From contig NZ_JACHHZ010000003.1 of the NCBI RefSeq assembly GCF_014202975.1, positions 930,001-994,000 on the forward strand: a stretch of DNA of 64,000 nucleotides, in the 5' to 3' direction. This document shows positions 5,058-59,507 of the stretch, one piece after another; position 1 is the first letter of the stretch; each line of letters starts with the position of its first letter. The translations under genes were made by a program, and so were the position numbers. This stretch comes from Povalibacter uvarum (GTDB lineage Bacteria > Pseudomonadota > Gammaproteobacteria > Steroidobacterales > Steroidobacteraceae). The notes below the pieces were generated by a model. It was given only the letters and a program-made list of their open reading frames with translations. It searched no databases and had not been told where the DNA came from.

Positions 5058-5085
5058 GCTGCTGGTGACTGGCCGCTGGCCAGAG
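5058..5085. repeat. Heptad tandem tract (xxxxCTG type)
   Basis: Four 7-base units: GCTGCTG, GTGACTG, GCCGCTG, GCCAGAG. They start just after the MCP stop codon. The same units recur after cheB (8457-8477). Confidence 0.6.
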
Positions 5086-5209
5086 TCGTTCAGGGGCCTG
5101 ATCGATAGCGGAAGTCGGAGTGGCGATAGAGCGAATGCCTTACTCCGGTCCGGGCGGATCAGGCCGATAAAGTGTTGGTGAGTTTTCGTAATTCTAAAGG
5201 GCGATAACT

Positions 5210-5722
5210 ATGCAGGCTGCAGAGACCCGTAACGGGGCTGTCGAAACCGGTTCGCACCAGGTGCTGACCTTCACGCTCGGTGAAGAGACGTACGGTGTGG
5301 ACATCCTGCGCGTGCAGGAAATCCGTGGCTATTCCACGGTGACGCGCATCCCGCAGTCGCCCCCGCACATCCTCGGTGTGCTCAACCTGCGCGGCTCGAT
5401 CGTGCCGGTCGTCGATCTGCGCATGCGATTCAACCTCGAGCGTGCCGAATACACGCCGCTCACCGTGATCATCGTCCTGTCGGTCGAGTCGGCTGTCGGC
5501 CGTCGTGACTTCGGCGTCGTCGTCGACGGCGTGTCGGACGTGATCGACGTTGCTTCGAACGACGTGAAGCCTGCGCCGGAGCTCGGCGAACAGGTCAGCA
5601 CGGAGTTCATCGAAGGCCTCGCGGCCGTTTCTGGCCGGATGGTCATGCTCCTCGACATCGATACGCTGATTGGCGGCGATGTCGCGGGTCTGGCTGCTGC
5701 GCCGGCGGCTACCGCGGCCTGA
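5210..5722 (+). CDS. cheW: Chemotaxis coupling protein CheW
   Basis: CheW links receptors to CheA in the signalling array. The 170-residue protein has one CheW/SH3-like domain: residues 17-50 (QVLTFTLGEETYGVDILRVQ) open the first beta sheet. The conserved ILGVLNLRGSIVPVVDLR segment and FGVVVDGVSDVIDV follow. The Ala/Thr-rich C-terminal tail after about 160 is not part of the fold. ATG 5210 has AAAGG upstream. A GCCGATAA box at 5162-5169 resembles a sigma-28 -10 element but lacks a good -35, so independent transcription is only possible. A 9-bp perfect hairpin follows the gene. Confidence 0.95.
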   Translation: MQAAETRNGAVETGSHQVLTFTLGEETYGVDILRVQEIRGYSTVTRIPQSPPHILGVLNLRGSIVPVVDLRMRFNLERAEYTPLTVIIVLSVESAVGRRDFGVVVDGVSDVIDVASNDVKPAPELGEQVSTEFIEGLAAVSGRMVMLLDIDTLIGGDVAGLAAAPAATAA

Positions 5723-5734
5723 TGTGATTGAAGC

Positions 5735-5758
5735 GGCGGCGCCTGCGAAGGCGCCGCC
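5735..5758 (+). terminator. Strong GC hairpin between cheW and cheR
   Basis: GGCGGCGCC (5735-5743), loop TGCGAA and GGCGCCGCC (5750-5758) form a perfect 9-bp stem. No U-run follows, so it may be an attenuator or an mRNA-stabilising hairpin rather than a full intrinsic terminator. Confidence 0.5.
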
Positions 5759-5797
5759 ATCCCCGCCTACTGTCTTTCGCTTTCGATCCGTACCGTC

Positions 5798-6694
5798 ATG
5801 CCGACTTCAGCCTTCCACGCCGATGTGCACGCCCCCGCAGGCGACAATGCGCAGTTCGGGCCGGTGCTCGGCGATGCGGAGTTCGAGTTCATCCGGCACG
5901 TCATTGCCGAGAACGCGGGCATCATCCTCGGACCGAACAAGCGCCAGCTCGTGCAGGGACGGCTCGCCCGCCGACTGCGCGAACTCGGCTTGCCGAGCTA
6001 CGAGTCCTACTGCGCGCACGTCCGCGACTCGGGTCCCGAGGAGCTCGTCGGTCTCATCAACGCGCTGACCACCAACGTCACGTCGTTCTTCCGCGAGAAC
6101 CATCATTTCGAGGCGCTCTCGTCGTACATGATCCCGGAAGCGCTGAAGCGCAATCAGACCTCGCGTCGTCTGCGTATATGGTCAGCGGGCTGCTCGACCG
6201 GCGAGGAGCCTTACTGCATCGCGATGGTCCTGTCGGAGTGTTTGCCGTCGGGCATCCGCTGGGACGCGAAGATTCTCGCCACGGACATCGACAGCGAAGT
6301 GATCAACACGGCGCAGCAGGGCATCTATCCCTCTGACCGTCTGTCGGCTGTTACCGAAGCCCGGCTGCGCCGCTGCTTCCGCAAGGGAGTCGGTGCGCAC
6401 TCCGGCCAGGCGATGATCCAGCCCGATGTTGCCCGGCTCATCACCTTCCGCACGCTGAACCTGCAGCACAACTGGCCGATGCAGGGACCGTTCGACGTCA
6501 TCTTCTGCCGCAACGTCATGATCTATTTCGATCAGCCGACGCGCGAGAAGCTGGTGACGCGATTCGCTGGACTGCTCGCGCCCGGCGGCTATCTGTGCCT
6601 CGGGCACTCGGAGTCGATCCACGCTGGCACCGCGCCGTTCCGGCTGGTCGGCAAGACGATTTACCGCAAGCACGGTGATGGCAATGGCGCTTGA
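5798..6694 (+). CDS. cheR: Chemoreceptor glutamate methyltransferase CheR
   Basis: CheR uses S-adenosylmethionine to methylate receptor glutamates for adaptation. The 298-residue protein has the usual N-terminal helical domain (about 30-95, including LVGLINALTTNVTSFFRE). The methyltransferase domain carries the SAM-binding motif RIWSAGCSTGEEPY near residues 125-140, LATDIDSEVI, and the CRNVMIYFD motif. The first 25 residues are not conserved-looking, so a later start is possible, and no strong ribosome site precedes ATG 5798. Its 3' end overlaps cheD. All three MCPs in this window end in a motif expected to bind CheR. Confidence 0.96.
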   Translation: MPTSAFHADVHAPAGDNAQFGPVLGDAEFEFIRHVIAENAGIILGPNKRQLVQGRLARRLRELGLPSYESYCAHVRDSGPEELVGLINALTTNVTSFFRENHHFEALSSYMIPEALKRNQTSRRLRIWSAGCSTGEEPYCIAMVLSECLPSGIRWDAKILATDIDSEVINTAQQGIYPSDRLSAVTEARLRRCFRKGVGAHSGQAMIQPDVARLITFRTLNLQHNWPMQGPFDVIFCRNVMIYFDQPTREKLVTRFAGLLAPGGYLCLGHSESIHAGTAPFRLVGKTIYRKHGDGNGA

Positions 6695-7331
6695 ACGTCA
6701 CGGAAGCGCGGCGGCGGATCTGCCGCGGGTCATGGCGGGATTCGAAACGATCCGGCGCTACCGCAACTCGACCGGCCAGATCATCGCGAAACTGCTCCCG
6801 GGCGATTTCTACGTCACGAGCAGCGATGAAGTCCTCGACACCGTGCTCGGCTCGTGTGTTTCGGCCTGCATTCGCGACCCGCGCCGCGGCGTCGGCGGCA
6901 TGAACCATTTCATGCTGCCGCGACCGAGCGGTAACGGCAACGATACCTGGGACAACGTCGCCGGCCGCGCAACGCGCTATGGCTCGGCGTCGATGGAACA
7001 GCTGATCAACCGTATCCTCAAGGCCGGCGGCGAGCGCAGCCAGCTCGAAGTGAAGATCTTCGGCGGCGGCCGCGTGCTGTCGAGCCTGACCGACGTCGGC
7101 AACCACAACGTCATCTTCGTCCGCGACTTCCTCAAACAGGAAGGTTTGCGCGTAGTGTCGGAGGATGTCGGCGAAACCTGTCCGCGTCACGTGCAGTACT
7201 TCCCGCTGACCGGACGCGTGCGGGTGCGGCACCTGAACTCGCGTCATTCGGGCGACGTCGTATCGCACGAACAGAAGTACCTCACGGGCATCGAACAGAC
7301 GCCGGTGGCGGGTGAGATCGATCTGTTCTGA
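6678..7331 (+). CDS. cheD: Chemoreceptor glutamine deamidase CheD
   Basis: CheD deamidates specific receptor glutamines and so helps adaptation. The catalytic cysteine lies in [12 protein letters not shown], followed by the family histidine in GGMNHFMLP and the segment [12 protein letters not shown]. The C-terminal region, [14 protein letters not shown], also fits. At 217 residues it is near the usual family length of 160-230. Start choice is uncertain: GTG 6675, ATG 6678 and ATG 6684 all overlap the end of cheR, and ATG 6732 lies just before the conserved part. The overlap suggests translational coupling with cheR. It lies 19 bases before cheB. Confidence 0.92.
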
Positions 7332-7350
7332 ACATCATGCGATAGCCATC

Positions 7351-8451
7351 ATGCCCATCAGACTCCTCATCGTCGACGACTCGGCCCTGGTCCGCAAACT
7401 GCTGACCGAGATGCTGGGCAAGGATCGCGACATCGAAATCGTGGGCACCGCCGCGGACCCGTTCGCTGCACGCGAACGCATCAAGCAGCTCAACCCGGAC
7501 GTGATCACGCTCGACGTGGAAATGCCGCGCATGGACGGCATCACGTTCCTCGAGAACCTGATGCGGTTGCGGCCGATGCCGGTCGTGATGGTGTCGTCGC
7601 TGACCCAGCACGGCGCGGATATCACGCTGCGTGCGCTGGAGCTCGGTGCGATCGATTTCGTTCCGAAGCCGAAGGTCGACGTCGCGGGCAGCCTCACGAA
7701 CTACGCTGAAGAGCTGATCGCAAAAGTGAAGATGGCTGCGGGTGCGCGGGTGAATCCCCGTGCGACTGCGCCACGCCCGGTGGCAATGCAGGTCGACGAG
7801 CGTCGTTCCGCGGATGCAGTGCTTCCGGCAGTCAGCGGTCGCCGCGTGCTGCGCACAACGGATCGAATCATCGCGATCGGCGCATCGACCGGCGGCACCG
7901 AAGCCATTCGAGAGGTGCTCGACGCATTGCCCGCCGACGCACCGGCCATTGTGATCTCCCAGCACATCCCGGCCGCCTTCAGCAAGCCGTTCGCCGAGCG
8001 CGTGAATCGCTCGTCGCAGATGTCGGTCTGCGAAGCGCAGGACGGTCAGTACATTCTTCCGGGCCACGTCTACATCGCCCCCGGCGATCGCCACCTGATC
8101 GTCGAGCGTGACGGCGCCCGCTACCGTTGCCGCCTGAGCGATGGCCCGCATGTGAATCGCCACCGCCCGAGCGTCGACGTGATGTTCCGCTCCGTCGCCC
8201 AGAACGTCGGCCCGAACGCCGTCGGCGTGATCCTTACCGGCATGGGCGATGACGGCGCCCGCGGCCTGAAGGAAATGCTCGAGGCCGGCGCCGGCACGAT
8301 CGCACAGGACGAAGCGAGCAGCGTCGTGTGGGGAATGCCGGGAGCGGCACACAAACTCGGCGCGGCTCAGCACGTGATGCCGTTGCATCGGATTCCCGCC
8401 CAGATTCTCGCGCTGTCGAATGAGGCGGGGGCGAGCAGGGCGGTCGGCTAG
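7351..8451 (+). CDS. cheB: Chemotaxis methylesterase/response regulator CheB
   Basis: CheB removes methyl groups from receptors when phosphorylated by CheA. The N-terminal receiver (1-120) has acidic residues D9/D10 and phospho-acceptor Asp55 in [11 protein letters not shown] linker of about 35 residues leads to the esterase domain. That domain's triad is Ser179 in GASTGG, His205 in SQHIPAAFS and Asp301 in GMGDDGARG. The start at 7351 was chosen because the receiver begins immediately ([11 protein letters not shown]); a longer frame from 7312 would overlap cheD. It is the only full CheA phosphate acceptor encoded in this operon. Confidence 0.96.
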
Positions 8452-8456
8452 CGCCG

Positions 8457-8530
8457 GCTGCTGGCCACTGGCCAGAGGGACTGAGGGGTTTTGTCCGCTT
8501 TCTGGCCAACGGCCAGTAGCCATCAGCCAG
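8457..8530. repeat. Inverted pair of heptad tracts after cheB
   Basis: The left tract is GCTGCTG, GCCACTG, GCCAGAG (8457-8477). The right tract is CTGGCCA, ACGGCCA, GTAGCCA, TCAGCCA (8502-8529). The arms are nearly complementary (CTGGCCACTGGCCAGAG against TCTGGCCAACGGCCAG), so the transcript could fold into a hairpin. They flank a 24-base non-repeat centre. Confidence 0.65.
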
Positions 8531-8627
8531 TCGCCTCCTTCACCAAACCCCGACCGGTTAACAGACCGCAGCGCCTCACATCTGCAATAGTCCTGCCGAT
8601 TGAGGCCCGCGTCTCATTCGCCTCATC

Positions 8628-8655
8628 TAAAGTCCGACGACTTGTTTGCCGATAC
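8628..8655 (+). promoter_or_regulatory. Sigma-28 type promoter of the HDOD gene
   Basis: TAAAGTCC (8628-8635), a 12-base spacer and GCCGATAC (8648-8655) resemble the FliA consensus, with a spacer one base longer than ideal. The -10 box ends only 7 bases before ATG 8663, so the message would have almost no leader. Confidence 0.55.
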
Positions 8656-8662
8656 CGCGCTT

Positions 8663-9562
8663 ATGACAACCAACAATCTCGCGACTGCCGCCGCCGATGA
8701 AGTCACTCAGCCTTCGGGCTCGTCGGGTGCCTTCCAGTTCGTGGCGGAACTGGCCGAGGAGGTTTCGAAGGGCAAGGTGGAGCTGCCTTCGTTCCCGGAC
8801 GTCGCTGTCCGCGTGCGCAAGGTCCTGGCCGATGAGGGCGTTTCCACGGAACAGATTGCGCGAGTGGTGGGATCGGATGCCGGCCTGGCCGCCCGTGTGC
8901 TCACGCTGGCGAACTCGGTCGCGCTCAACCGCAGCGGCAAGACGATTGCCGAGATCAAGACGGCGGTGAATCGCATCGGACACAACAACGTTCGCACGGC
9001 TGCTGTGTCGTTCGCGATCGCCCAGTTGCGTCGCGCCGCGGAGCTGCGCCACATCGCGAAGGAACTCGAAGGCCTGTGGCAGGAAGCGACCATGGTCGCA
9101 GCTCATGCCTACGCCATCGCTTCGCGTGCCACGAAGATCAACGCGGACGAGTGCATGCTCGCCGGCCTGCTGCACAACGTCGGCAAGATCTACATCCTTG
9201 CCCGCGCGAACCGTCATGGCAGCCTGTTCCGCGATCCTGCGACGCTCGCGCACGTCATCCGCGACTGGCACTCGAACGTCGGCAAGGCAATCATCGAGAA
9301 CTGGGGCTTCCCGGAACACATCTCCGACGCCGTCGCGGACCACGAGAACATCGATCGCACGGCCGGCCATCCGGACGTCACGGACGTGCTCACCGTGGCC
9401 GTGATGATGTCCGGCTTCGTCGGGCACGAAGCGGATCTCGAACTGAACATGCAGGGCGTGAAGGCCTTCTGGCGCCTCGGCCTCGACAACGAAAAATGCG
9501 TTCACATCGTGAATGACTGCAAGGACGAAATCGCAGCGCTGCGCACCGCGCTCGGCGACTGA
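8663..9562 (+). CDS. HDOD-domain signalling protein
   Basis: HDOD proteins are HD-GYP-like regulators without a required catalytic HD pair; they are often linked to chemotaxis, motility or cyclic-di-GMP. Over 299 residues, a short Ala/Thr-rich N-terminus precedes the HDOD fold (about 35-240): ELPSFPDVAVRVRKVLADEG, VVGSDAGLAARVLTLANS, then MLAGLLHNVGKIYILAR and ENWGFPEHISDAVADHE. ATG 8663 was preferred to an upstream TTG at 8600 because the longer version would translate the sigma-28 promoter and has no ribosome site. The gene stands between cheB and a second MCP, so a motility role is a reasonable inference; its output is unknown. Confidence 0.85.
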   Translation: MTTNNLATAAADEVTQPSGSSGAFQFVAELAEEVSKGKVELPSFPDVAVRVRKVLADEGVSTEQIARVVGSDAGLAARVLTLANSVALNRSGKTIAEIKTAVNRIGHNNVRTAAVSFAIAQLRRAAELRHIAKELEGLWQEATMVAAHAYAIASRATKINADECMLAGLLHNVGKIYILARANRHGSLFRDPATLAHVIRDWHSNVGKAIIENWGFPEHISDAVADHENIDRTAGHPDVTDVLTVAVMMSGFVGHEADLELNMQGVKAFWRLGLDNEKCVHIVNDCKDEIAALRTALGD

Positions 9563-9569
9563 TTCTTCC

Positions 9570-9636
9570 GTCACTCCCGCGTACGCGGGAGTCATCTTCG
9601 TCTCAAGACATGGATTCCCGCTTGGGCGGGAATGAC
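9570..9636. repeat. REP pair (GTCACTCCCGCG/GGGAATGAC)
   Basis: Two inverted palindromic units, one with core CTCCCGCGTACGCGGGAG and one with core TTCCCGCTTGGGCGGGAA, are separated by about 20 bases, as in bacterial interspersed mosaic elements. Other copies are at 11639, 16109, 24492, 27686 and 33331. Confidence 0.8.
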
Positions 9637-9798
9637 GAGGGCGTGTCGGTTCATCTCCGACCCCGATTCCTTCCTCATCAGTTCCCTGCGCAGCCGCATG
9701 TACGCCCGACCCTGATTCAGGGCCGTCTGTCATTGAGCCTGATTCAGTTCGGCCGATAAGCCTGACTGAATTTCCAGTTTTCCTTAATGGCACCGCAC

Positions 9799-11517
9799 AT
9801 GAACTTCTCTTCCCTCAGTATCAAGACCCGGATTACAGCCACGCTCGCCTTGCTGGCGTTGTCGATGATCGTCGTCGGCGTGCTCGGCCTGAACGGCATG
9901 GGCGGCATCGTGGATGACCTGAGCGATATGTACGAACGTCGCGTGCGCGTCGTCGGCACGCTCGGTGACCTGCAGGCGGCCGAGCTCGACCGCCAGGCAC
10001 TGATCAGCCTGCACGTGCTCGCCGATGATGCGGAGAAGATGAAGGCCATCAAGGCAGAGCGCATGGAGACGAAGTCGCGCGCCGCGGCCCTGCTGAAGGA
10101 GTACGCCGACAAGCAGAGCTCCGAAGAAGGGCATCAGTCCGCTCGCAATATTGCCGACGCAGAGCGTGCATACCAGATTGTTCTCGATGAAGTCGATGTT
10201 GCCATTGCAGCGAACGACGACGATGTCGCCAGCAAACTGATCGTGGACAAGCTCGACCCGGCCTTTGACGGGTTGCACAACGCTCTCCAGGACGCGTCGA
10301 AGTTCCAGTTCAAGCGGGCGGAGCAGGCCCTCGCCGCGGCCCAGGGTGAGTACAGCACCAATCGCACCGTCGTGATCGGCGCCATGGTCATCGCGGCGAT
10401 TGCGGCGGCTGCCTTCGCCATCATGTTGCTGCGCTCCATCATGTCCGCGCTCGGTGTGGCCGTGAACGTTGCCGACAAGATCGCCAACGGCGAACTGGGT
10501 CATGACATCCCGGCCGATCGCGGCGATGAGTTCGGTGCGCTGCTGGGTTCGCTCAAGCGCATGGACGGCAAGCTGCATGACATCGTGAACGGCGTGCGTG
10601 GTGCGTCGGAAGCAGTCGGCGGCGCTGCCGGTCAGCTGTCGAAGGGCAACGATGACCTGTCGCAGCGTACGCAGGAACAGGCGTCGGCGCTCGAAGAGAC
10701 CGCGTCGAGCATGGAAGAGATGACGGCGACGGTGAAGCAGAACGCGGACAACGCCCGCCAGGCCAATCAGCTGGCGACGAGTGCCCGCGGCCAGGCGGAG
10801 CGCGGCGGTTCCGTCGTGCAGCGCGCTGTTTCCGCGATGACCGAGATCAACGGCTCGAGCCGCAAGATCGCCGACATCATCAGCGTCATCGACGAGATCG
10901 CCTTCCAGACCAATCTGCTCGCGCTCAACGCAGCCGTCGAAGCGGCGCGTGCGGGTGAACAGGGCCGTGGCTTCGCGGTCGTGGCGAGCGAAGTTCGCAG
11001 CCTCGCGCAGCGCAGCGCGACCGCGGCGAAGGAGATCAAGGACCTCATCAACGACTCCGTCGAGAAGGTGAGCGTGGGTTCGAGTCTCGTCGACGAGTCG
11101 GGCAAGGTGCTGTCCGAGATCATGGACAGCGTCAAGAAGGTCAGCGACATCGTCGCCGAGATCGCGGCTGCCAGCGAGGAGCAGGCGTCGGGCATCGAGC
11201 AGGTCAACAACGCCGTCACGCAGATGGACGACACGACCCAGCAGAATGCAGCGCTGGTCGAAGAAGCCGCTTCCGCCGCGAAGTCGATGGAACAGCAGGC
11301 CCAGCGCCTGATCTCGGAAATCGGATTCTTCCGGGCCGCATCGCAGGCCCGCTTCGAGCGCTCGCAGCAGCCGGTCGTCGAAACCGCTGCGCCGACCGCG
11401 ACGATCAAGCAATTGCGCCGGCCGGCAAGCCGTCCGGTTCGTGCGGCCGCCAAGCCGGTTTCCCGTCCGGCCCCGATGGCGAAGGCGAGCGGGGACGATA
11501 CTTGGCAGGAGTTCTAG
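9799..11517 (+). CDS. Methyl-accepting chemotaxis protein (second)
   Basis: This is a 572-residue receptor: membrane helix at about 9-29, periplasmic helical-bundle sensor, second helix at about 188-213 ([20 protein letters not shown]), HAMP, and a signalling hairpin with the invariant tip [20 protein letters not shown]. It ends DDTWQEF, again fitting the xWxxF docking motif. ATG 9799 ([11 protein letters not shown]) was chosen because it aligns with the first MCP ([11 protein letters not shown]); ATG 9787 adds four residues, and neither has a clear ribosome site. A GCCGATAA box lies at 9752-9759. An intrinsic terminator follows at 11563. The sensor differs from the first MCP, so the ligand is probably different. 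Confidence 0.92.
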
Positions 11518-11562
11518 GAGGAGCGGTTGGCGGTTGGCGGTTGGCGGTTAGTTGAGAAGAAG

Positions 11563-11590
11563 AGGGGGCCATCTGGCCCCCTTTTCCTTT
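11563..11590 (+). terminator. Intrinsic terminator after the second MCP
   Basis: AGGGGGCC, loop ATCT and GGCCCCCT form an 8-bp GC-rich stem followed by a T-rich tract TTTCCTTTT. It lies 46 bases after the MCP stop codon and separates the chemotaxis block from leuS. Confidence 0.85.
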
Positions 11591-11638
11591 TGCGTGGCTG
11601 GTGAGGGCAAGGGGGTAGCGGACGAGTACAGGGCGACG

Positions 11639-11664
11639 GTCATTCCCGCGCAAGCGGGAATCCA
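11639..11664. repeat. Single REP unit
   Basis: GTCATTCCCGCG, CAA and GCGGGAATCCA; same family as 9570-9636, here as one unit only. Confidence 0.75.
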
Positions 11665-11734
11665 CTCTCGGTTCCCACTAACCGCTAACCGCCAACCGCT
11701 AACCGCTTCTCCCTGCTATCCTTCAAATCCCTGA

Positions 11735-14359
<2,625 letters not shown>

Positions 14360-14372
14360 GAAGAAGCGAGCC

Positions 14373-14400
14373 AGCTACGAGCGATGAGCTGGTAGCCAGA
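14373..14400. repeat. Heptad tract between leuS and the HAD gene
   Basis: AGC recurs every 7 bases at 14373, 14380, 14387 and 14394 (AGCTACG, AGCGATG, AGCTGGT, AGCCAGA). The unit type matches tracts at 45361 and 54263. Confidence 0.55.
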
Positions 14401-14418
14401 AACTAGAGAGAAGAGCAG

Positions 14419-15036: not shown

Positions 15037-15066
15037 AACTCCCCGGAAAACAAGTCTGGAGCAGGG

Positions 15067-15162: not shown

Positions 15163-15314
15163 GAGGCTCAACGAAGGGGGCGCTGCCCGGCCTTTTCATT
15201 TCCCGACAGCAGTTGCCGCTCCCGCCCGCTTGTCCGGCCCCGCCATCGGCGCTAGGTTAGTGTTTCGAAAGTCCGGTTTCGGACCGTCTAGCGATTTCAT
15301 GCCCGGGGGTTCCC

Positions 15315-16091: not shown

Positions 16092-16108
16092 CGATCGCGG
16101 TCGCGATC

Positions 16109-16147
16109 GTCATCCCCGCGAAAGCGGGGATCCCTCCGGCGGAGGGA
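16109..16147. repeat. REP unit followed by a perfect 7-bp hairpin
   Basis: GTCATCCCCGCGAAAGCGGGGATCC (16109-16133) is a REP unit. TCCCTCC, GGC, GGAGGGA (16131-16147) follows immediately and could act as a transcription stop after the aldolase gene. Confidence 0.7.
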
Positions 16148-20229: not shown

Positions 20230-20251
20230 ATGAGCTGCCTTCCTCTTTTCT

Positions 20252-20272
20252 CGCCAACCGCCAACCGCTTGC
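20252..20272. repeat. Short heptad tract CGCCAAC
   Basis: CGCCAAC twice and CGCTTGC, 22 bases after the response-regulator stop codon. The same unit forms longer tracts at 11681 and 58163. Confidence 0.55.
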
Positions 20273-20434
20273 CTCCGTCTACGTAGTCCTACGCATCGCA
20301 GCTACGCATCCCTTCTTACTGAAGATTGCGTGTCCTTCGTTATTTATCCGCGAGCCGCTTTGCTTGAAAGTACGCGTCACATGGCGGCTGCCCGTTCGGG
20401 CGGTCTTCTCTGGCACGACAACCAAGCTGGGCCG

Positions 20435-45177: not shown

Positions 45178-45355
45178 GACGCATCTCTCCCTAATGAACG
45201 AGTGGAAAACGGCAGCAACACGCATCCGACGGACGCGCGCTGTCGAGGCGGGGTCACGACGATCGCAAACAGGAATGTGGCCAGGATTGCTCGAAGGGAG
45301 AGACGTTTTAGTTGTCGCGCCGATGAGAAGTCAATAGTGGAGGACGCAGAAGAGG

Positions 45356-45441
45356 CGGCGAGCTGCGAGCGATGAGCGGTGAGCCAGAGAAGAGTGGTTC
45401 GTAGTGGTATCTGGCTCGTCGCTCATTGCTCGCCGCTCACC
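45356..45441. repeat. Inverted heptad pair, AGC/GCT every 7 bases
   Basis: AGC recurs at 45361, 45368, 45375 and 45382 (units GGCGAGC, TGCGAGC, GATGAGC, GGTGAGC). GCT recurs at 45414, 45421, 45428 and 45435 (GCTCGTC, GCTCATT, GCTCGCC, GCTCACC). The two arms are approximate reverse complements. Confidence 0.7.
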
Positions 45442-45552
45442 GCCTCTTGTCACGCGCGAGTCACCTTGAGCCGCGAGCAATCTATACGAGCCACAAGTCA
45501 TGACCAGATGAGACCGAGCCGCCGAGCCGCAGCCAATGAGCTTCCGATTCTG

Positions 45553-45587
45553 GCTCGCGGCTCACAGCTCGCAGCTCACAGCTCCTC
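45553..45587. repeat. Heptad tract GCTCRCR
   Basis: GCT recurs at 45553, 45560, 45567, 45574 and 45581 in GCTCGCG, GCTCACA, GCTCGCA, GCTCACA, GCTCCTC. A degenerate inverse arm (GAGC-rich) lies just upstream at about 45510-45541. Confidence 0.6.
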
Positions 45588-52261: not shown

Positions 52262-52367
52262 GCGTCGATCGCGGGATTGTATACGCGTGAAATCTCGCTC
52301 ATCCGCGTGAGAAAGCGATCGCGCCGAACTACACTGCCGCCTCGTCATCCGATGAGGCTTTGCGTTC

Positions 52368-54251
52368 ATGAACGCCATTCGTTCCCGTTGTCAGGCAGGT
52401 CTGCTCCTGCTGTTCCTGGCCGCTGCCGCGCAGTCGGCGCAGACCGGCACTGAAGACCCCCACTCGTTTGCGAACACCCGCGATTTCCGTGCGACGCACG
52501 TCGCGCTGGATCTGGAAGCGGATTTCACGCGCAAGCGGCTGGTCGGCCACGCGGATCTGACGCTGCATCGCGCGAACGCGGCGGCTCGTGAAGTCGTCCT
52601 CGACACGCGCGAGCTGAAAGTGTCCAAGGTCGAGCTGCGGACGGCCACGCCAGTTCAACTGAAGTTCCGGCTCGGAGAGGCCAAGCCGATCCTCGGCGCG
52701 CCGTTGCACATTCAGCTGCCGGAGAAACTGGCTGCACAGGACATCGTCGTCCGCGTCTCGTACGAGACCTCGCCCCAAGCAAGCGGCCTGCAGTGGCTCG
52801 AGCCTTCACAGACGGCAGGAAGGAAGTATCCCTACCTGTATTCGCAGTCGCAGGCGATTCATGCGCGCAGCTGGATTCCGCTGCAGGACACGCCGCTGGT
52901 CCGGCTCACCTACGAGGCGCGGATTACCACGCCGCCGCAGCTTCGCGCGGTGATGAGCGCCGAGAATGATCCCAATGCCGCCCGCACTGGCCGTTACGAC
53001 TTCAAGATGCCTCAGGCGATTCCTTCCTATCTGATCGCGCTCGGTGTCGGCGACCTGGTTTTCAAGCCGATTGGTGCGCGCACGGGCGTCTATGCCGAGC
53101 CCAACGTCGTGGATTCGGCGGCGCATGAATTCGCGGACGTGCAGTCGATGCTCGAGACCTGCGAGAAGCTGTTCGGGCCCTATCGCTGGGGACGCTATGA
53201 CCTGCTGATCCTCCCGCCGAGCTTCATGTGGGGCGGCATGGAGAATCCGCGGCTGACCTTCCTGACACCAACCGCCATCGCCGGCGATCGCAGCCTTGTC
53301 GCATTGATTGCGCATGAGCTGGCGCATTCGTGGTCCGGCAATCTCGTGACGAACGCGAACTGGGAGAGCCTGTGGCTGAACGAAGGCTTCACCGTCTATC
53401 TCGAGCGTCGCATCGTCGAGGTGCTGTATGGGGTGCAGCGTCGTGAGATGGAGGATGTCCTGGGTCTGCAGTCGTTGCGTCGTGATATCGCGAGCCTGGA
53501 GAAGGCGGGCGACGGAGAGCTCACGCAGCTGTCGGTCGACCTGAGCGGACGCGATCCGGACGATGCTTTCACAGATGTCCCTTATGAAAAGGGCCGGCTG
53601 TTCCTCGGCTTCCTCGAGTCGCGTCTCGGGCGGGAGAAGCTCGATGCGTTCCTCCGCGGCTACTTCGACAAGTTCGCGTTCAAGAGCGTGACGACGCAGG
53701 ATTTCGTGGATCAGCTGAAGTCCCAGGTGCTGAACCGACCTGGCGTCAAGCTGACGCTCGCAGAGGTGCAGGCGTGGATCGAAACGCCCGGCATTCCGGC
53801 CAACGCAGTTCTGCCGCACTCGGATGTCTTCGTCCGAGTGGACGCGCAGCGTGATGCGTGGCTTCAGGGCAAGCGCACCGCGAAGCAACTCGAGACCGCG
53901 AAGTGGACGACGCAGGAGTGGCTGCACTTCCTCGACAATATGCCCGCAACGCTATCGGCCGATCGCCTTCGCGAGCTCGATCAGGCATTCAATCTCACGG
54001 CTTCGACGAACGCCGAGATCGCGCACAGCTGGCTGAAGGATTCGATCCGCGCGAACTACGCGCCTGCATGGCCGCGCCTCGAGCAGTACCTGACGAGCAT
54101 CGGCCGACGCAAACTCGTGAAGCCGCTCTACGATGAGCTGCTCAAGACGCCGGAAGGGACGCGCCGCGCGCAGCAGATCTACGCCAAGGCGCGTCCGTTG
54201 TATCAGATTCCGTTGGCGCAGCAGCTGGACGAGTTGATTCCGAAGAGCTGA
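52368..54251 (+). CDS. Exported M1-family aminopeptidase (LTA4H-like)
   Basis: This zinc aminopeptidase of 627 residues has a signal peptide (CQAGLLLLFLAAAAQSAQ), so it is periplasmic or secreted. The N-terminal beta domain runs to about 220. The catalytic domain has GGMEN at 289-293 (exopeptidase motif), the zinc motif HELAHSW near 315-321 and the downstream Glu in WLNEGFTVYLE. The C-terminal helical domain has ETPGIPANAV near 478, which is characteristic of leukotriene-A4-hydrolase-like members. All catalytic residues are present. It probably trims peptides outside the cytoplasm; the LTA4H-like class also includes aminopeptidases of Proteobacteria. Confidence 0.94.
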   Translation: MNAIRSRCQAGLLLLFLAAAAQSAQTGTEDPHSFANTRDFRATHVALDLEADFTRKRLVGHADLTLHRANAAAREVVLDTRELKVSKVELRTATPVQLKFRLGEAKPILGAPLHIQLPEKLAAQDIVVRVSYETSPQASGLQWLEPSQTAGRKYPYLYSQSQAIHARSWIPLQDTPLVRLTYEARITTPPQLRAVMSAENDPNAARTGRYDFKMPQAIPSYLIALGVGDLVFKPIGARTGVYAEPNVVDSAAHEFADVQSMLETCEKLFGPYRWGRYDLLILPPSFMWGGMENPRLTFLTPTAIAGDRSLVALIAHELAHSWSGNLVTNANWESLWLNEGFTVYLERRIVEVLYGVQRREMEDVLGLQSLRRDIASLEKAGDGELTQLSVDLSGRDPDDAFTDVPYEKGRLFLGFLESRLGREKLDAFLRGYFDKFAFKSVTTQDFVDQLKSQVLNRPGVKLTLAEVQAWIETPGIPANAVLPHSDVFVRVDAQRDAWLQGKRTAKQLETAKWTTQEWLHFLDNMPATLSADRLRELDQAFNLTASTNAEIAHSWLKDSIRANYAPAWPRLEQYLTSIGRRKLVKPLYDELLKTPEGTRRAQQIYAKARPLYQIPLAQQLDELIPKS

Positions 54252-54262
54252 AGCAGGCTGCG

Positions 54263-54320
54263 AGCAGTGAGCGACGAGCGATGAGCCAGAGCCCGATTCC
54301 CCTCTGGCTCACAGCTCGCC
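54263..54320. repeat. Inverted heptad pair between M1 peptidase and TonB receptor
   Basis: AGC recurs at 54263, 54270, 54277 and 54284 (AGCAGTG, AGCGACG, AGCGATG, AGCCAGA); GCT recurs at 54307 and 54314 (GCTCACA, GCTCGCC). It lies between converging genes. Confidence 0.6.
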
Positions 54321-54332
54321 CTCATCCCCCTT

Positions 54333-56342
54333 CTAAAACTCCGCTCGCACTCCCAGATTCAACGACCGCCCCGGCAGCGGCGCGATGTCCTTCAGCGGCG
54401 ATGTCGCGAGACGCATGTCCTCATCCAGCAGGTTGGTGCCGCGAGCGAACAGCAGCAGATGCTTGTCGCGTAGCGGCATGCGGTAGCTGATGTCGAGATC
54501 GAGCTGCGTGAAGCTGTCCGTCGGCAGCTCGTTTTCGATCACGTCGTCCTGCTTCGTGTTGTAGAACGCTTCCAGTCCCGCGTGCCACGGGCCCACGTCG
54601 TAATGAATGGAGGCGCCGAACCGCAACGGCGGGATCTGCGGCAGGTTGCTGCCATCGTCGAGCTTGCCGCGAACGTAGTCCGATGCGAGGCGGAGTTCCA
54701 GTGAAGGTTCGCCCTGCGAGAGCAGAGGGAAGTTGACTTCGGCTTCGTAGCCGTAGAGCTTCGCGCCGCTCTGAAGATATTCGTAGATCGGCAGCACGTC
54801 CTCTTCGCCGGCGTCGAATTCGCCGGTGGGTCGCAGGTAGATGTAATCGTCGTAGTCGTTGTAGAACGCGTTCACCGTCCAGCGAATGCCATCGCCGGCT
54901 TTGCGCAGCGACAAGTCCGCGGTAAGGGCGGTTTCCTTTTCGAGGAACGGATCGCCGACTTCCACACGGCCGGCCGCGATGTGCGGACCATCGGCGTAAA
55001 GCTCCGCTGGTTGCGGATGACGCTCGGTTCTCGTCAGGTTCAGGGCGAGCGAACGATCTTCCGCGATTTTGAAGACGAGTCCCGACGACAGATTGATCGC
55101 GGTCTCGTCATAGTCGGGCAGCCCGGCCGCCGCTTCGGGATCGATAGTCTGATTTTCCGCGCGCGCTCCGAGTTCGAGCGTCCAGCGATCGAAATGACGT
55201 TCTTCGAACACGAAAATGCTCGCTGCGCGCGTGACCGACGCCGGTACGAACGCTTCCTCACCGATGGCTTCGAAATCGATATCGACGAATTGCGCGCCCA
55301 CCGTGCCGCGCCAGCCGTCACCCCAGTGATGGTCCGCAGCAGCGCGCACTTCGTATGAGTCCTGGTTGAACACGGTGCCAGGTTCGCCTGGCGCTTCGAA
55401 TTCCGTGTGCGTGTAGTCGCTGTACGCCGCGCTCACGTGCAAGGTGTCGAGCCAGTCCCCGTTCGCGAGCCATTCACCGCGGGCATCGAAGCGGTCCTGC
55501 TGCATGTCGATGAATGCTTCTTCCTCGGCGGGAATCCCGTAAACGGATTCGTACCGGCTCCACGAGAGCCCGCCGAAACCAGCATCACCGACGAGCGAAG
55601 CGCCGATGGCGCCGCCGCGACTGTCGCTTGCCGAGTTGGGCAGTCGACCGCGCACGTCGTCCGGTGTTTCGCCGGCTTCGATGATCTCGCGACGCAGCGC
55701 GTCGGACTGCGCGTAGCCGGGGATCTCGACGTCGTCCGTCTCGCGATCGAAGTAGTCGGCATGCAGTGCGAGCGCACCGGCGTTGCCGTCGAAGCTCACG
55801 GCACCAGTGCGTTCCTTTGTGGCGCTGTCAGCGCGCAGTTCGGCCGCGCCGGAGAAGGGCGTCCCCGTGATCTCATCAGGAATTCGCGTGGTCACCACAT
55901 TCACCAACCCGCCTGCCGCGCCGCTTCCGTAGAGCAGCGACGCCGGTCCCTTGATGACTTCGATCTGCTGCGAGACCACCGATTCGATGGCAACGGCGTG
56001 ATCCTGGCTGAGGCTGGAGACATCGAGCGCGGCCGCGCCATCCTGAAGGACCTGCACCCGATAGCCGCCTAGTCCGCGGATGACAGGCTGGCTGGCGCTG
56101 GGACCGAAGTACGTCGAGCTCACGCCGAGCTCGCCGGAGAGAGTTTCGCCGATGCTCGCCGCAATCTGGCGCCGCAGATCGTCGCCAGCCATCACGCTGG
56201 TGGGCTGGGCGACATCGAGCGGGTTCTCGTGCAGAGCCGTCGAGGTCACGACGACCTGTTCGACGGTGGATTCCTGGGCGTGGGCGGCGGAAACGGAAAG
56301 CATCGCGACTACGGCGATGCGCAGGGAATGACTGGGACGCAT
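54333..56342 (-). CDS. TonB-dependent receptor, ZnuD-like (zinc uptake)
   Basis: A 669-residue outer-membrane receptor. Signal peptide (MRPSHSLRIAVVAMLSVSAAHAQ), a TonB-box-like region (EQVVVTSTAL), a plug with SASIGETLSGELGVSSTYF-like sequence (ASIGETLSGELGVSSTYF), QPVIRGLGGYRVQVLQDG and SSLSQDHAVAIESVVSQQIE. These match ZnuD-type zinc receptors more than siderophore receptors. The 22-strand barrel ends NLGVRAEF. It lacks the His-rich loop of Neisseria ZnuD, so copper or another substrate cannot be excluded. Start at 56342 gives a normal signal peptide and has AGGAAT upstream; 56363 is an alternative. The neighbouring DUF2946 gene often accompanies metal receptors. Confidence 0.88.
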   Translation of the reverse strand: MRPSHSLRIAVVAMLSVSAAHAQESTVEQVVVTSTALHENPLDVAQPTSVMAGDDLRRQIAASIGETLSGELGVSSTYFGPSASQPVIRGLGGYRVQVLQDGAAALDVSSLSQDHAVAIESVVSQQIEVIKGPASLLYGSGAAGGLVNVVTTRIPDEITGTPFSGAAELRADSATKERTGAVSFDGNAGALALHADYFDRETDDVEIPGYAQSDALRREIIEAGETPDDVRGRLPNSASDSRGGAIGASLVGDAGFGGLSWSRYESVYGIPAEEEAFIDMQQDRFDARGEWLANGDWLDTLHVSAAYSDYTHTEFEAPGEPGTVFNQDSYEVRAAADHHWGDGWRGTVGAQFVDIDFEAIGEEAFVPASVTRAASIFVFEERHFDRWTLELGARAENQTIDPEAAAGLPDYDETAINLSSGLVFKIAEDRSLALNLTRTERHPQPAELYADGPHIAAGRVEVGDPFLEKETALTADLSLRKAGDGIRWTVNAFYNDYDDYIYLRPTGEFDAGEEDVLPIYEYLQSGAKLYGYEAEVNFPLLSQGEPSLELRLASDYVRGKLDDGSNLPQIPPLRFGASIHYDVGPWHAGLEAFYNTKQDDVIENELPTDSFTQLDLDISYRMPLRDKHLLLFARGTNLLDEDMRLATSPLKDIAPLPGRSLNLGVRAEF

Positions 56343-56420
56343 GTGAATCGATTCCTGAAACAAATGACACGGCGCGACGCACGGGCGTCGCAGGGCTGTT
56401 GCCGCTCGAAGCGGCGACGG

Positions 56421-56747
56421 TCAGGCTTGCTTAAGGAAACGAGGGGGTGCGCGGGCTTGCGCGACCGAGACGAGGCGTTGCGAAACGAATTCCGCGTCAC
56501 GGTCGACGATGCCGATCTGGACGCAGGACGGGGTGGGGAGCGCATGAGCATGAACTGGCGGCGCGTCCGCGGCACCGAAGGTGACGCAATAACCGCAGGC
56601 CGTGCTGTGAAGCGCGGTGGTCGCGGAACCCTGCTCGTGGGTGTGTGCCGCATGCGCGATCGAATTCAGCGCGAACGCCAGCATCAGCGCCGCGAGCGTT
56701 ACTCGCAGCCACTGTGGAGGTTTTCGGGCCAGTTCGAAGACGGACAT
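56421..56747 (-). CDS. DUF2946-type small exported protein
   Basis: The 108-residue protein has an N-terminal hydrophobic segment (LRVTLAALMLAFALNSIAHA) and a Cys motif ACGYCVTFGAADAPP followed by histidines, which is the DUF2946 pattern of short proteins found next to copper or zinc TonB receptors. The domain's role is unknown; metal binding is likely. It lies 78 bases upstream of the ZnuD-like receptor and in the same direction, so the two form a probable operon. Confidence 0.75.
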   Translation of the reverse strand: MSVFELARKPPQWLRVTLAALMLAFALNSIAHAAHTHEQGSATTALHSTACGYCVTFGAADAPPVHAHALPTPSCVQIGIVDRDAEFVSQRLVSVAQARAPPRFLKQA

Positions 56748-57055
56748 GGGTGCAGGGATACCGACGACTCGCCGAGGCTACCGGTCCGGCGAGGGTCATG
56801 TAAAGGCTCGGCGACCGGCGAAGCGGCGCGTGTTGCGCAAAACCGGGCCTGAACCCGAGGCCGGATTGCCGGTTCCCCCCAAGCTTTCGTCGATTCCGCC
56901 ATTGGTTCATAATCGGTCGCACCTATAGCGGCCGCATCGCGCCATTGCTGCATCCACCTCAGTGCCTACGACCCGACCTTCCCCGTTCAATGGCTGCCAG
57001 CATGTTTTCACGCCGTTTTCCGGCATTCCGCTGACCGTGGCACTGGTTTCCCGAA
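56748..57055. other. Intergenic region before holA
   Basis: This 308-base gap lies between divergent genes. I see a CATAAT box at about 56907-56912 with a poor -35 and no repeats of the heptad or REP families. No gene or lptE remnant is visible. Confidence 0.5.
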
Positions 57056-58084
57056 GTGAAAATCTCCGGCGATAACCTCGCGGCCACGCTGTCGCGCGGT
57101 TTGGGCCCGATCTACCTGGTCTCGGGCGATGAGCCGCTGCTCGTGAACGAAGCGGCCGATGCCATCCGCGCCCGTGCGCGCAAGGAAGGCTTCACCGAGC
57201 GCGATCTCCACATCGTCGAACGCGGTTTCGACTGGAACGCACTGCTCGCGGACAGTCGCGCAATGTCGCTGTTCGCCCAGCGCAAGATCGTCGAGATCAG
57301 GTTGCCTACGGCGGCGCCGGGCGATCAGGGCGCAAGCGCGATCATCGAGCTGGCCGGGCAGCCTTCGCCCGACAACGTCGTGCTGATCATCACCGGGAAG
57401 ATGGACGGCCGCGTACAGAACTCGAAGTGGGTGAGCGCCGTCGAGAAGAGCGGTGCGGTCATCCAGATCTGGCCCATCGATCTGCCGCGGTTGCCGGCCT
57501 GGATCCGTGAGCGCCTGGGCAAGCATGGCCTGCAGGCAGATCAGGATGCAGCACTAGAACTCTCCGAGCGCGTCGAGGGCAATCTGCTCGCAGCGCACCA
57601 GGAAATAGAAAAGCTTGCGCTGCTGTTGCCGCCCGGCCCCGTGACCCTGCAGACCGTTCTGGATTCCGTCGCGGACAGTGCCCGCTACGATGTGCTGCAA
57701 CTCGGCGAGGCCGCGATGCGCGGCAAAACGTCCAGGGCGCTGCGAGTCCTCGAAGGGCTGCGCGGCGAAGGCATCGACCCCGTCCTCGTCCTGTGGGCCG
57801 TGAACAAGGATCTGCAGTGGATTGCCCGCGCCCAGCATCTGATGCGCAACGGCCAGAGCGCCGACAGCGCCATGAATGCGATTTACGTCTGGCGACCCCG
57901 GCAGACCGCGATGCGCGACGCGCTCAACCGACTCAAACCCTCAGCGGTCCGCGGCCTGCTGCAGGATGCCTCGCGCGTCGATCGCGCGATCAAAGGCGTA
58001 CTGCGCACCGATCCGTGGGTCGAGATGGAAGGCCTCGTCGCGCGCTTCTCCGGCGTACCCCTGTCGCGCTCGAAGGCCGCATGA
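57056..58084 (+). CDS. holA: DNA polymerase III delta subunit HolA
   Basis: Delta opens the sliding clamp as part of the clamp loader. The 342-residue protein has the typical start (MKISGDNLAATL), the ATPase-like fold with YLVSGDEPLLVNEAADAI, DNVVLIITGKMD and SVEKSGAVIQIWPI-type segments, then a lid and collar (EGNLLAAHQEIEKLALLLPP, LGEAAMRGKTSRALRVLEGL). The start is GTG 57056 with no strong ribosome site. Housekeeping order continues to nadD, rsfS and rlmH. In many relatives lptE lies just upstream; here it is 40 kb away. Confidence 0.95.
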   Translation: MKISGDNLAATLSRGLGPIYLVSGDEPLLVNEAADAIRARARKEGFTERDLHIVERGFDWNALLADSRAMSLFAQRKIVEIRLPTAAPGDQGASAIIELAGQPSPDNVVLIITGKMDGRVQNSKWVSAVEKSGAVIQIWPIDLPRLPAWIRERLGKHGLQADQDAALELSERVEGNLLAAHQEIEKLALLLPPGPVTLQTVLDSVADSARYDVLQLGEAAMRGKTSRALRVLEGLRGEGIDPVLVLWAVNKDLQWIARAQHLMRNGQSADSAMNAIYVWRPRQTAMRDALNRLKPSAVRGLLQDASRVDRAIKGVLRTDPWVEMEGLVARFSGVPLSRSKAA

Positions 58085-58087
58085 AAA

Positions 58088-58197
58088 CTGCGAATGGCGA
58101 ATGGTTGCGGGCAGTCGAAGCGGGTGATCAGCGCGCTTCTGCCTCCCCAATTCTTACTAACCGCCAACCGCCAACCGCCAACCGCCAACCGCTTCTC
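58088..58197. repeat. Heptad tract GCCAACC between holA and nadD
   Basis: GCCAACC occurs four times at 58163-58190 and continues GCTTCTC; ATGGCGA-type units at 58088-58108 form a degenerate inverse arm (GCGAATG GCGAATG GTTGCGG). The tract ends 3 bases before the nadD start codon, so it occupies its ribosome-site region. Confidence 0.7.
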
Positions 58198-58200
58198 CTA

Positions 58201-58842
58201 ATGAATCCCATCGGCATCTTCGGCGGCACGTTCGACCCGATTCATTTCGGACACCTGCGCACGGCGTTCGAGCTTCTGCAGGCGTTGCGTCTGACGGAAA
58301 TGCGTTTTATGCCGGCCGGCAATCCGCCACACCGGGAAATGACGGTCGCTTCCTCGGAGGAGCGGCTCGCGATGGTGCGCGCGGCGACCGAAGGCCAGGC
58401 GGGTTTCGTCGTCGACGATCGCGAGATCCGTCGCGAAGGACTGTCGTATTCCGTCGATACGATGCGGACGCTGCGCGCGGATTTTCCGGAACGCTCGCTC
58501 TGCCTGATCGTCGGTATGGATGCGTTCCTCGGGCTGCCGAAGTGGCATCAGTGGCGTGAGTTGCTGGAACTCGCGCACCTGGTGGTTGCGCATCGGCCGG
58601 GCTGGCGTGCGCCGAGCATGGGGCCGCTGGGCGAGTTGCTCGTCGATCGCGGCACGGGAAGGATCAACGATCTGCACGAGTCGAAGGCGGGCTGCATCTA
58701 CATCCACGCGGTGACGCAGCTGGAAATTTCTTCGACCGAAGTCCGCAAGTCGATTGCGGCGGGGCGCGATCCCCGCTATCTGATGCCCGACGCAGTGCGG
58801 GCGTATATTGGGCAAACCGGGTGTTATCGACCCAAGAGGTGA
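58201..58842 (+). CDS. nadD: Nicotinate-nucleotide adenylyltransferase NadD
   Basis: NadD makes nicotinate adenine dinucleotide in NAD synthesis. The 213-residue protein has the nucleotidyltransferase motif GIFGGTFDPIHFGHL at residues 5-19, MPAGNPPHREM, the LIVGMDAFLGLPKWHQW segment and the ISSTEVRKSI motif, all in order. ATG 58201 follows the repeat tract GCTTCTCCTA and has no clear ribosome site. The stop lies 2 bases before the rsfS start, so both are probably coupled. Confidence 0.95.
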   Translation: MNPIGIFGGTFDPIHFGHLRTAFELLQALRLTEMRFMPAGNPPHREMTVASSEERLAMVRAATEGQAGFVVDDREIRREGLSYSVDTMRTLRADFPERSLCLIVGMDAFLGLPKWHQWRELLELAHLVVAHRPGWRAPSMGPLGELLVDRGTGRINDLHESKAGCIYIHAVTQLEISSTEVRKSIAAGRDPRYLMPDAVRAYIGQTGCYRPKR

Positions 58843-58844
58843 GC

Positions 58845-59426
58845 ATGGCCGAAAAGCGCGCAAGCACTTCACGTCGTCCAGGAGTTTCGAAGTCCGCATC
58901 CGCGGGCAAGTCCGCCGGCAAGCACGCAACGAAGCGGCCGAAAGCGGGCGTGGCAGTCAAAGCCTCCGTGAAGAAGAAGGCGCCGATCCGCGCGGTCAGG
59001 GACACGGGCGCAAAGCGTCCTGCGGCCAAGGCGGCCCCGGCGAAATCGCCTGCGAAGTCCCCGAAACCGACCTTTGCCGCCGCTCCGGTGGTGAAAGTCA
59101 TCGAGGCTGCTCTCGATGACATGAAGGCGGTGCAGGTGAAGGTCCTGGATGTCCGCAAGCTGACCGATATCGCCGATACGCTCGTCATTGCGTCCGGCAC
59201 TTCGGATCGTCACGTCCGTTCGATCGCCGATCGCGTCATCGAGTACGCGAAGAAAGCCGGCTTTCGTCCGATGGGTGTCGAAGGCCAGCGCGACGGCGAG
59301 TGGGTGCTGGTCGATCTCCAGGATGTGATCGTCCACATCATGCTGCCTCGCGTACGCGAGCTGTATCGATTGGAGAACCTGTGGGATGTGAGCGCGGCGC
59401 GTCGCGACGCGGCGGTGGGCGAGTAA
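58845..59426 (+). CDS. rsfS: Ribosome silencing factor RsfS with a long basic N-terminal tail
   Basis: RsfS binds ribosomal protein L14 and blocks subunit joining in starved cells. The conserved domain is residues 82-185: VVKVIEAALDDMKAVQVKVL, DIADTLVIASGTSDRHVRSI and GEWVLVDLQDVIVHIMLPRV. The protein is 193 residues, about 75-80 more than usual, because residues 1-80 are Lys/Ala/Pro/Ser-rich (MAEKRASTSRRPGVSKS..., KKKAPIRAV, AKAAPAKSPAKSPKP) like a histone-H1 tail. ATG 58845 has a strong AAGAGGTGA site, so the tail is translated. The next gene is rlmH, as is usual. Confidence 0.93.
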   Translation: MAEKRASTSRRPGVSKSASAGKSAGKHATKRPKAGVAVKASVKKKAPIRAVRDTGAKRPAAKAAPAKSPAKSPKPTFAAAPVVKVIEAALDDMKAVQVKVLDVRKLTDIADTLVIASGTSDRHVRSIADRVIEYAKKAGFRPMGVEGQRDGEWVLVDLQDVIVHIMLPRVRELYRLENLWDVSAARRDAAVGE

Positions 59427-59432
59427 GAGAGG

Positions 59433-59507
59433 GTGACGAGTGCGAGTGACGGGTGACGGGCACACCGTCATTTTCACGCTCGTCACGCGTCATCGGTCAC
59501 TCGTTAC
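59433..59507. repeat. Inverted heptad pair between rsfS and rlmH
   Basis: GTGAC-type units at 59433, 59440, 59446 and 59453 (one 6-base step) face GTCAC-type units at 59482, 59489, 59496 and 59503 (exact 7-base steps). The right arm ends just before the rlmH start. Confidence 0.6.

What the first reader, a model, noticed from the sequence alone, without database searches (positions are those of the whole stretch)
5058..59507. Family of intergenic tandem repeats with constant 7-base period but variable unit sequence
About ten loci (5058, 8457, 11522, 13824, 14373, 20252, 45356, 45553, 54263, 58163, 59433) show units repeated every 7 bases. The unit differs by locus: GGCGGTT/AACCGCC, CTGGCCA, GAGCGAT/GCTCACA, GTGACGG. 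The period is conserved while the sequence is not, so this is not expansion of a single motif. At most loci a tract and its approximate reverse complement face each other around a non-repeat centre. Heptameric intergenic repeats are known in some bacteria, but this variable-unit, inverted-pair form seems poorly described.
Basis: seen in the sequence. Interest (0 to 1): 0.75.

Follow-up and report, generated by a model that had tools for sequence, protein, structure and literature searches.

The report
Paired four-heptad arms at gene ends
This bacterium and several relatives carry many short DNA elements squeezed between genes, often as two mirror-image arms of about four 7-letter words; spacing and a short end signature are kept while the words differ between places and species, which simple repeat expansion does not easily explain.

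Summary
In 1.664 Mb of the window's own genome period 7 is the standout intergenic repeat period: 72 intergenic and 10 genic tracts; shuffled intergenic DNA gives 0.1. Partners are inverted, not direct (44 against 1 of 82), and share their own locus's unit.

The unit is not free. Where an inner cap is found (91 of 130 arms) R-G recurs every 7 nt for four units. Arms point away from the nearest ORF end in 71 of 75 cases.

The genus is Steroidobacter. Elements fill operon junctions that are tight in several relatives, and arms lie inside leuS in four species. The same junction often carries different units in different species. G061 gained pairs that G060 lacks.

Sense-strand pairing shows no G.U preference (56 against 67), G-quadruplex motifs are rare (2 of 130), and RAYT genes do not track the elements.

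Best reading: DNA-level, REPIN-like spread whose copied unit is the ~36-nt arm; agent unknown. Close precedents are Xanthomonas GGGAATC heptads and paired tandem sites in Geobacter metallireducens. New variant of a known kind.

The parts
5050..5085 (+). Imperfect arm, CTGGC-type units, cap GGCCAGAG, starting at the stop of the 3341-5050 gene
   Evidence: arm model score 32.1
8442..8477 (+). Left arm of a CTGGC-type pair
   Evidence: arm model 19.2
8500..8535 (-). Right arm of the same pair
   Evidence: arm model 37.3
11523..11564 (+). Left arm, (GCGGTTG)n, 5 nt after the stop of the 9799-11517 gene
   Evidence: period-7 score 20, distance, arm model 28.5
11672..11707 (-). Right arm, (AACCGCY)n, 45 nt before the leuS start
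   Evidence: period-7 score 17, distance, arm model 40.0
13824..13859 (-). Single GGCTGCT-type arm inside the leuS coding sequence, in frame ([10 protein letters not shown])
   Evidence: the protein alignment shows this loop is variable in length
14366..14401 (+). Imperfect GAGC-type arm after the leuS stop
   Evidence: arm model 28.3
20248..20283 (-). Short GGTT-type arm
   Evidence: period-7 score 10, arm model 21.8
45354..45389 (+). GAGC-type left arm
   Evidence: arm model 40.2
45409..45444 (-). GAGC-type arm facing 45354
   Evidence: arm model 31.9
45548..45584 (-). Further GAGC-type arm in the same intergenic region
   Evidence: period-7 score 14, arm model 41.6
54256..54291 (+). GAGC-type left arm
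   Evidence: arm model 38.4
54302..54337 (-). GAGC-type right arm facing 54256
   Evidence: arm model 20.2
58151..58192 (-). GGTT-type arm ending 8 nt before the next start, (AACCGCC)4.9 on the + strand
   Evidence: period-7 score 27, arm model 45.0
59431..59460 (+). GTGACGG-type imperfect arm; a GTCAC-rich stretch follows to about 59507
   Evidence: TRF only; read by eye; no call tested it as a pair

Best explanation
Each locus is a non-autonomous insertion of a hairpin-forming element. The copied unit is the ~36-nt arm: about four heptads RGNNNNN ending in a cap close to RGYCAGAR. Two arms of the same family are placed inverted around local DNA, hugging the end of one reading frame and the start of the next. 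The process acts on DNA, not on RNA function. The families (GGTT, GGAT, GAGC, CTGGC, GGCGACA, GTTGAC and others) are alternative lineages of arms; each genome is dominated by those recently active, and favoured junctions are hit or rewritten in different species. Shown: insertion relative to relatives, arm anatomy, direction, recent gain in G061 at two loci, unit differences at orthologous junctions, no sense-strand preference for G.U. Inferred: that the arm is the copied unit, that a hairpin or cruciform is what the copying agent recognises, and that spread is neutral or selfish. The agent is not identified.
For: Where only G000 has an element the median junction is 140 bp against 21 in G061, 140 against 13 in G028 and 150 against 13 in G062 (score cut 8). 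fliP-fliQ overlaps by 4 bp in 6 species and carries 132, 117 and 98 bp with heptad arms in G000, G069 and G044. Inside leuS, in open frames: two pairs in G069, one in G067, one in the partial leuS of G065, a single arm in G000. Upstream of ileS G060, G062, G063 and G066 are tight while G061 has a full pair between flanks 95% and 94% identical to G060. Upstream of leuS the same four lack heptads and G061 has a pair. Arms point away from the nearest ORF end in 71 of 75. Inverted partner 44, direct partner 1, of 82. G.U 56 against A.C 67, p 0.37. At motC-motD the elements of G000, G069, G067, G044, G065 and G062, and one arm in G068 at a contig end, have differing units, some only slightly.
Against: Loops are not shared between loci as in a copied whole element: with loops of 20 nt or more and E 0.01, the strong blastn hits are to another dispersed palindrome lying in two loops or to further arms in a loop (the cut rows lie within one query's list), and the new G061 loop upstream of ileS has no second copy in G061 and none in G060 or G063. 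One exception: two neighbouring fli elements of G069 share a loop. No transposase is linked: PF01797 was not found in heptad-bearing G061, G065 (75% complete) and G067. No target-site duplication was established; the G061 gain at leuS replaced flanking sequence. The source of the new loop upstream of ileS is unexplained. At three further loci (L332, L336, L339) only G060 was compared, which does not settle gain against loss. The cap profile is partly built in, since caps were searched with a fixed pattern.
Confidence: 0.37

Rival explanations
1. Simple repeat growth in place: a chance 7-nt seed expands by polymerase slippage and a fold-back (template switch) copies it into the inverted arm, so arms match and units differ by locus.
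For: Explains matched arms with unrelated loops and centres that keep older sequence (leuS and L332 in G061). The G060 ileS junction holds GGTTCGTGAA, which resembles the inner end of the new G061 arm. Period 7 has been linked to polymerase contact size (cited by Rehm 2015). Longer arrays, up to 11 copies, do occur in other Steroidobacter.
Against: Arrays stop at four-to-five units in G000 (score >=12: 3, 24, 43 and 2 tracts of 2, 3, 4 and 5 copies), a recurrent cap ends them, and one genome uses the same few units at many unrelated loci.
Confidence: 0.25
2. Paired arrays are binding sites for a DNA- or RNA-binding protein with a 7-nt repeat footprint, whose preference for the variable bases differs between families and species.
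For: R-G every 7 nt for four units plus a cap; unit set differs by genome. Comparable paired tandem sites in Geobacter metallireducens were proposed by their authors to bind unidentified global regulators or IHF/HU proteins, a proposal without a binding test in the passages seen.
Against: Several unit families coexist in one genome; relatives lack the sites at many of the same genes; arms occur inside leuS. No candidate protein was sought here.
Confidence: 0.14
3. RNA-level regulatory hairpin: transcribed arms pair and act on termination, stability or translation of the neighbouring genes.
For: Codirectional junctions hold most elements (68 of 81 junctions with a tract; 977 of 1410 of all junctions); arms flank stop and start codons; hairpins form by construction.
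Against: Mismatches between arms show no G.U excess on the sense strand, 56 against 67. Relatives lack the elements at many of the same junctions. Arms also occur within leuS.
Confidence: 0.13
4. G-quadruplex elements as proposed for Xanthomonas GGGAATC.
For: Same period, four-unit preference, pairing and placement.
Against: Only 2 of 130 tracts in G000 and 6 of 56 in the other Steroidobacter sample hold a G3+ motif.
Confidence: 0.02

Closest known systems
Xanthomonas GGGNATC heptad repeats, Rehm et al. 2015, PMC4692102 (abstract, part 1 of 3 of the Results, sections 13 and 14 and the Discussion read)
   Different: One G4-capable unit; here many units in one genus, almost none G4-capable, with a shared R-G register and cap, and different units at the same junction in sister species
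Paired tandem-repeat sites of Geobacter metallireducens, PMC2700814, 2009 (passages only)
   Same: Several classes in one genome; sites on opposite strands in pairs at variable distance; fixed repeat numbers (class 1 four octanucleotides, class 2 three repeats, class 3 five heptanucleotides MTYCTGA); a further family of 49 elements with four heptanucleotide repeats, in and between genes
   Different: Classes 1 and 2 are not strictly heptameric, each class is a fixed consensus found by BLAST, and no turnover between species was reported in the passages seen; the authors suggest regulator or IHF/HU binding
TAACTGA direct repeats of Beggiatoaceae, MacGregor 2015, PMC4679880 (abstract and outline read)
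   Same: Intergenic heptamer repeats, two to six copies, close to start codons
   Different: A single fixed heptamer, direct rather than paired ('one indirect repeat')
REP/REPIN elements with RAYT transposases (PMC3116915, PMC3733652; search listing only)
   Same: Short palindromic non-autonomous elements in many copies
   Different: No heptad arrays known to me (recalled); here loops are unrelated and RAYT genes do not track the elements
Rickettsia palindromic elements (recalled; search listing only)
   Same: Palindromic elements inserted in frame in genes (recalled)
   Different: Family-conserved sequence and no heptads (recalled)

Membership tests
Xanthomonas-type heptad repeats | Tandem unit of 7, mostly intergenic | tested here: met
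   72 intergenic of 82 tracts
Xanthomonas-type heptad repeats | Preference for four units | tested here: met
   43 of 72 tracts at score >=12 have 4.x copies, 2 of 72 have more
Xanthomonas-type heptad repeats | Facing inverted pairs; sense after stop, antisense before start | tested here: met
   44 inverted against 1 direct of 82; 71 of 75 point away from the ORF
Xanthomonas-type heptad repeats | Unit GGGNATC, able to form a G-quadruplex | tested here: not met
   2 of 130 tracts with a G3+ motif
Xanthomonas-type heptad repeats | Same cap and R-G register in Xanthomonas itself | not testable with these tools
Geobacter metallireducens paired sites | Tandem sites paired on opposite strands at variable distance, several classes per genome | tested here: met
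   inverted pairs; centre lengths from 12 to 245 nt in 65 pairs; several unit families in G000
Geobacter metallireducens paired sites | Class consensus sequences and binding by a regulator or IHF/HU | not tested
REP/REPIN-RAYT | RAYT (Y1 transposase) in element-bearing genomes | tested here: not met
   PF01797 not found in G061, G065, G067 and found in heptad-poor G028; G065 is only 75% complete
REP/REPIN-RAYT | Copies share one sequence, interior included | tested here: not met
   loops mostly unrelated between loci; new loop unique
Slippage microsatellite | Open-ended length distribution | tested here: inconclusive
   G000 maximum 5.4 copies in 130 tracts, but 5 of 56 tracts in other Steroidobacter have six or more, up to 11
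RNA regulatory hairpin | G.U tolerated over A.C on the sense strand | tested here: not met
   56 against 67, p 0.37
TAACTGA-type repeats | Single fixed heptamer | tested here: not met
   at least four unit families in G000

The most novel reading that the evidence does not exclude
A class of dispersed bacterial element in which what is inherited is a layout (two inverted arms of about four heptads, R-G every 7 nt, a CAGA-type cap, at ORF ends) rather than a sequence: an unknown activity writes or rewrites both arms with the genome's current heptad, so orthologous junctions in sister species carry different words in the same places.
Probability: 0.25. Interest if true: 0.88.

Novelty: new variant of a known kind. 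Interest (0 to 1): 0.57.

Why it matters
It separates the four-unit, paired, gene-end layout from G-quadruplex formation, the published lead for the Xanthomonas case, whose role that paper leaves open. It suggests that scattered reports in Xanthomonas, Geobacter and here may describe one layout. And it offers a closely related pair, G061 and G060, in which gains look recent, so how such arms arise becomes directly testable.

Tried and rejected
RNA-level pairing: rejected as the main driver (55 plus 13 elements had a definable sense strand; 10 of 65 elements at convergent or divergent junctions were left out). G-quadruplexes: rejected. RAYT mobilisation: rejected by presence and absence. Whole-element copy-paste: not supported by loops, with one local exception in G069. 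Shared ancestry alone: G000 and G069 elements coincide at conserved junctions (score cut 8, 108 junctions: both 10, G000 only 11, G069 only 4, neither 83, p 5.9e-6; cuts 9 and 10 give 2.6e-5 and 1.5e-5). On inspection 1 of the 10 shared and 2 of the 4 G069-only cases rest on a GGAGAGG-type low-complexity tract, not an arm. Of the 9 remaining shared junctions the unit family is the same at one (cheY-cheZ). But leuS and ileS were also hit in G061, so favoured sites remain an alternative to shared ancestry. Two junctions over 600 bases were dropped. A first Fisher test used a hand count (11, 11, 1, 87) and is replaced. Xanthomonas comparison: no carrier among 274 sampled genomes. The G060-G061 comparison covers leuS and four further loci chosen because both sides could be fetched. 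One paper search found nothing. All counts in G000 use my own simple gene caller, not a curated annotation.
Full report
What was checked. The window is G000:C3:930001-994000 of a 6.32-Mb genome in 11 contigs. Its genus holds 14 genomes; the contig that carries leuS in G062 has the same length as the Steroidobacter gossypii S1-65 contig found by name, so the genus is Steroidobacter. In the 1.664 Mb of this genome that I read, period 7 gives 72 intergenic and 10 genic tracts at score 11; the next intergenic period that is not a multiple of 7, period 9, gives 19 and 14; shuffled intergenic DNA gives 0.1.

Anatomy. Typical loci read: stop codon, a few bases often like GAAG, about four heptads, a cap, a locus-specific centre, then the mirror image, then a start codon a few bases on. 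Tracts have an inverted partner of their own unit within 300 bp in 44 of 82 cases, a direct partner in 1 of 82, and match the inverted unit of other loci in about 12 of 82. The 65 pairs used next are 42 from G000 and 23 from seven other genomes. Anchored on the cap (91 of 130 arms; shuffled windows 18%; 39 arms had no cap and were dropped from the profile), the arms show R then G at the cap and at 7, 14, 21 and 28 nt before it (G 80 to 85%), and lose it at 35 (G 36%). Related arms of one family weigh on this profile, and the cap itself was searched for by pattern. In G000 130 tracts reach at most 5.4 copies; at score 12, 43 of 72 have four and 2 of 72 have five; in other Steroidobacter 5 of 56 tracts are of six copies or more, up to 11, so the limit is not universal. 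Near ORF ends, 39 of 42 arms by stops and 32 of 33 by starts point away from the frame; 13 tracts were ambiguous and left out, as were tracts more than 30 nt from an end.

Comparison between species. Junctions that carry an element only in G000 have medians of 140 to 150 bp there and 13 to 21 bp in G061, G062 and G028 at score 8; against G060 and G063 (two junctions each) 116 and 21; against G003 116 and 109, so that genome does not show the contrast. At seven junctions read in up to 14 genomes, motC-motD has elements in G000, G069, G067, G044, G065 and G062 and an arm in G068 at a contig end, with differing units; fliQ-fliR has them in G000, G069, G067 and G044, and a weaker one read by eye in G065; prmB-aroC in G000, G069, G044 and G065, the G000 and G044 arms there being of one family. 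cheY-cheZ has the same family in the sisters G000 and G069, and the ileS junction has GTTGAC units in G044 and G065 and decayed in G003, which form one clade, so some elements are inherited with their unit. Inside leuS there are two pairs in G069 (residues ~370-388 and ~719-735), one pair and a weak tract in G067 (~369-385, ~732), one pair in the partial leuS of G065, and a single arm in G000 (~697), all in open frames; the 33-residue insertion of G063 holds no heptads at the score used. LeuS, FliR, the MotC-type motor protein, AroC and an IleS fragment were named by family scan; the other gene names are my reading of the sequences.

Recent gain. G061 has 70 matches to the GGTT/GGAT pattern and its close relative G060 none. 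Upstream of ileS G060, G062, G063 and G066 are tight and G061 has a full pair inside otherwise about 94 to 95% identical DNA. Upstream of leuS a stretch conserved in the relatives remains in the centre of the new pair, and at L332 a CTTTCGCGCGATAAT stretch does. All 11 G061 loci that I printed, of about 23 places, have two arms.

Mechanism. If transcripts had to pair, sense-strand mismatches should be G.U rather than A.C; they are 56 and 67 over 68 elements. That argues for a DNA-level process. The copied unit is inferred to be the arm, because caps and length are fairly constant while centres are unrelated. Two neighbouring fli elements of G069 do share a centre. PF01797 transposases are found in 6 of 14 genomes, among them heptad-poor G028, and not in heptad-bearing G061, G065 and G067. 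I found no agent.

Wider spread. Among 80 named leuS loci (1.49 Mb), period 7 gives 19 tracts at score 12, but periods 6, 12 and 9 give 18, 18 and 12, so period 7 does not stand out over the whole set; 17 of the 19 lie in five bins (L066, L076, L078, L084, L085), some as facing pairs, and 12 of 19 have four copies; their caps differ by eye. GCGGWTRGCGGWTRGCGG occurs in 3 of 60 genomes sampled from the family.

Literature. No paper on such repeats in Steroidobacter was listed; subscription papers are not held, so this is not proof of absence.

Noticed in passing
window 11637-11664, and many places in G000: A second dispersed palindrome, GTCATTCCCGCGCAAGCGGGAATCC-like, sits in the centre of the leuS-upstream pair and has many other copies in the genome.
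   Followed up: partly
G069:C5 near 116207 (upstream of leuS): G069 carries another palindrome (GGCCGGCTTCAGCCGGCC-type) where G000 has heptad arms upstream of leuS.
   Followed up: no
L159, G063 leuS: A 33-residue in-frame insertion in leuS at the same loop as the heptad insertions of G069 and G067, but without heptads at the score used.
   Followed up: no
L066, L078, L084, L085: Bins labelled Bordetella parapertussis (L066) or Betaproteobacteria with heptad tracts of other units (GAGGGGC, CATTCCG, CCTCACG, GAAGGCA), several of them facing pairs.
   Followed up: partly
L210 about 15165-15241 (G003): Long CTGGAGR heptad array of 11 copies, unlike the four-unit rule of G000.
   Followed up: no
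L002, G000:C7:253914-254063: A stretch 75% identical to window 5246-5395, inside the gene that follows the 5050 arm; probably a paralogous gene.
   Followed up: no
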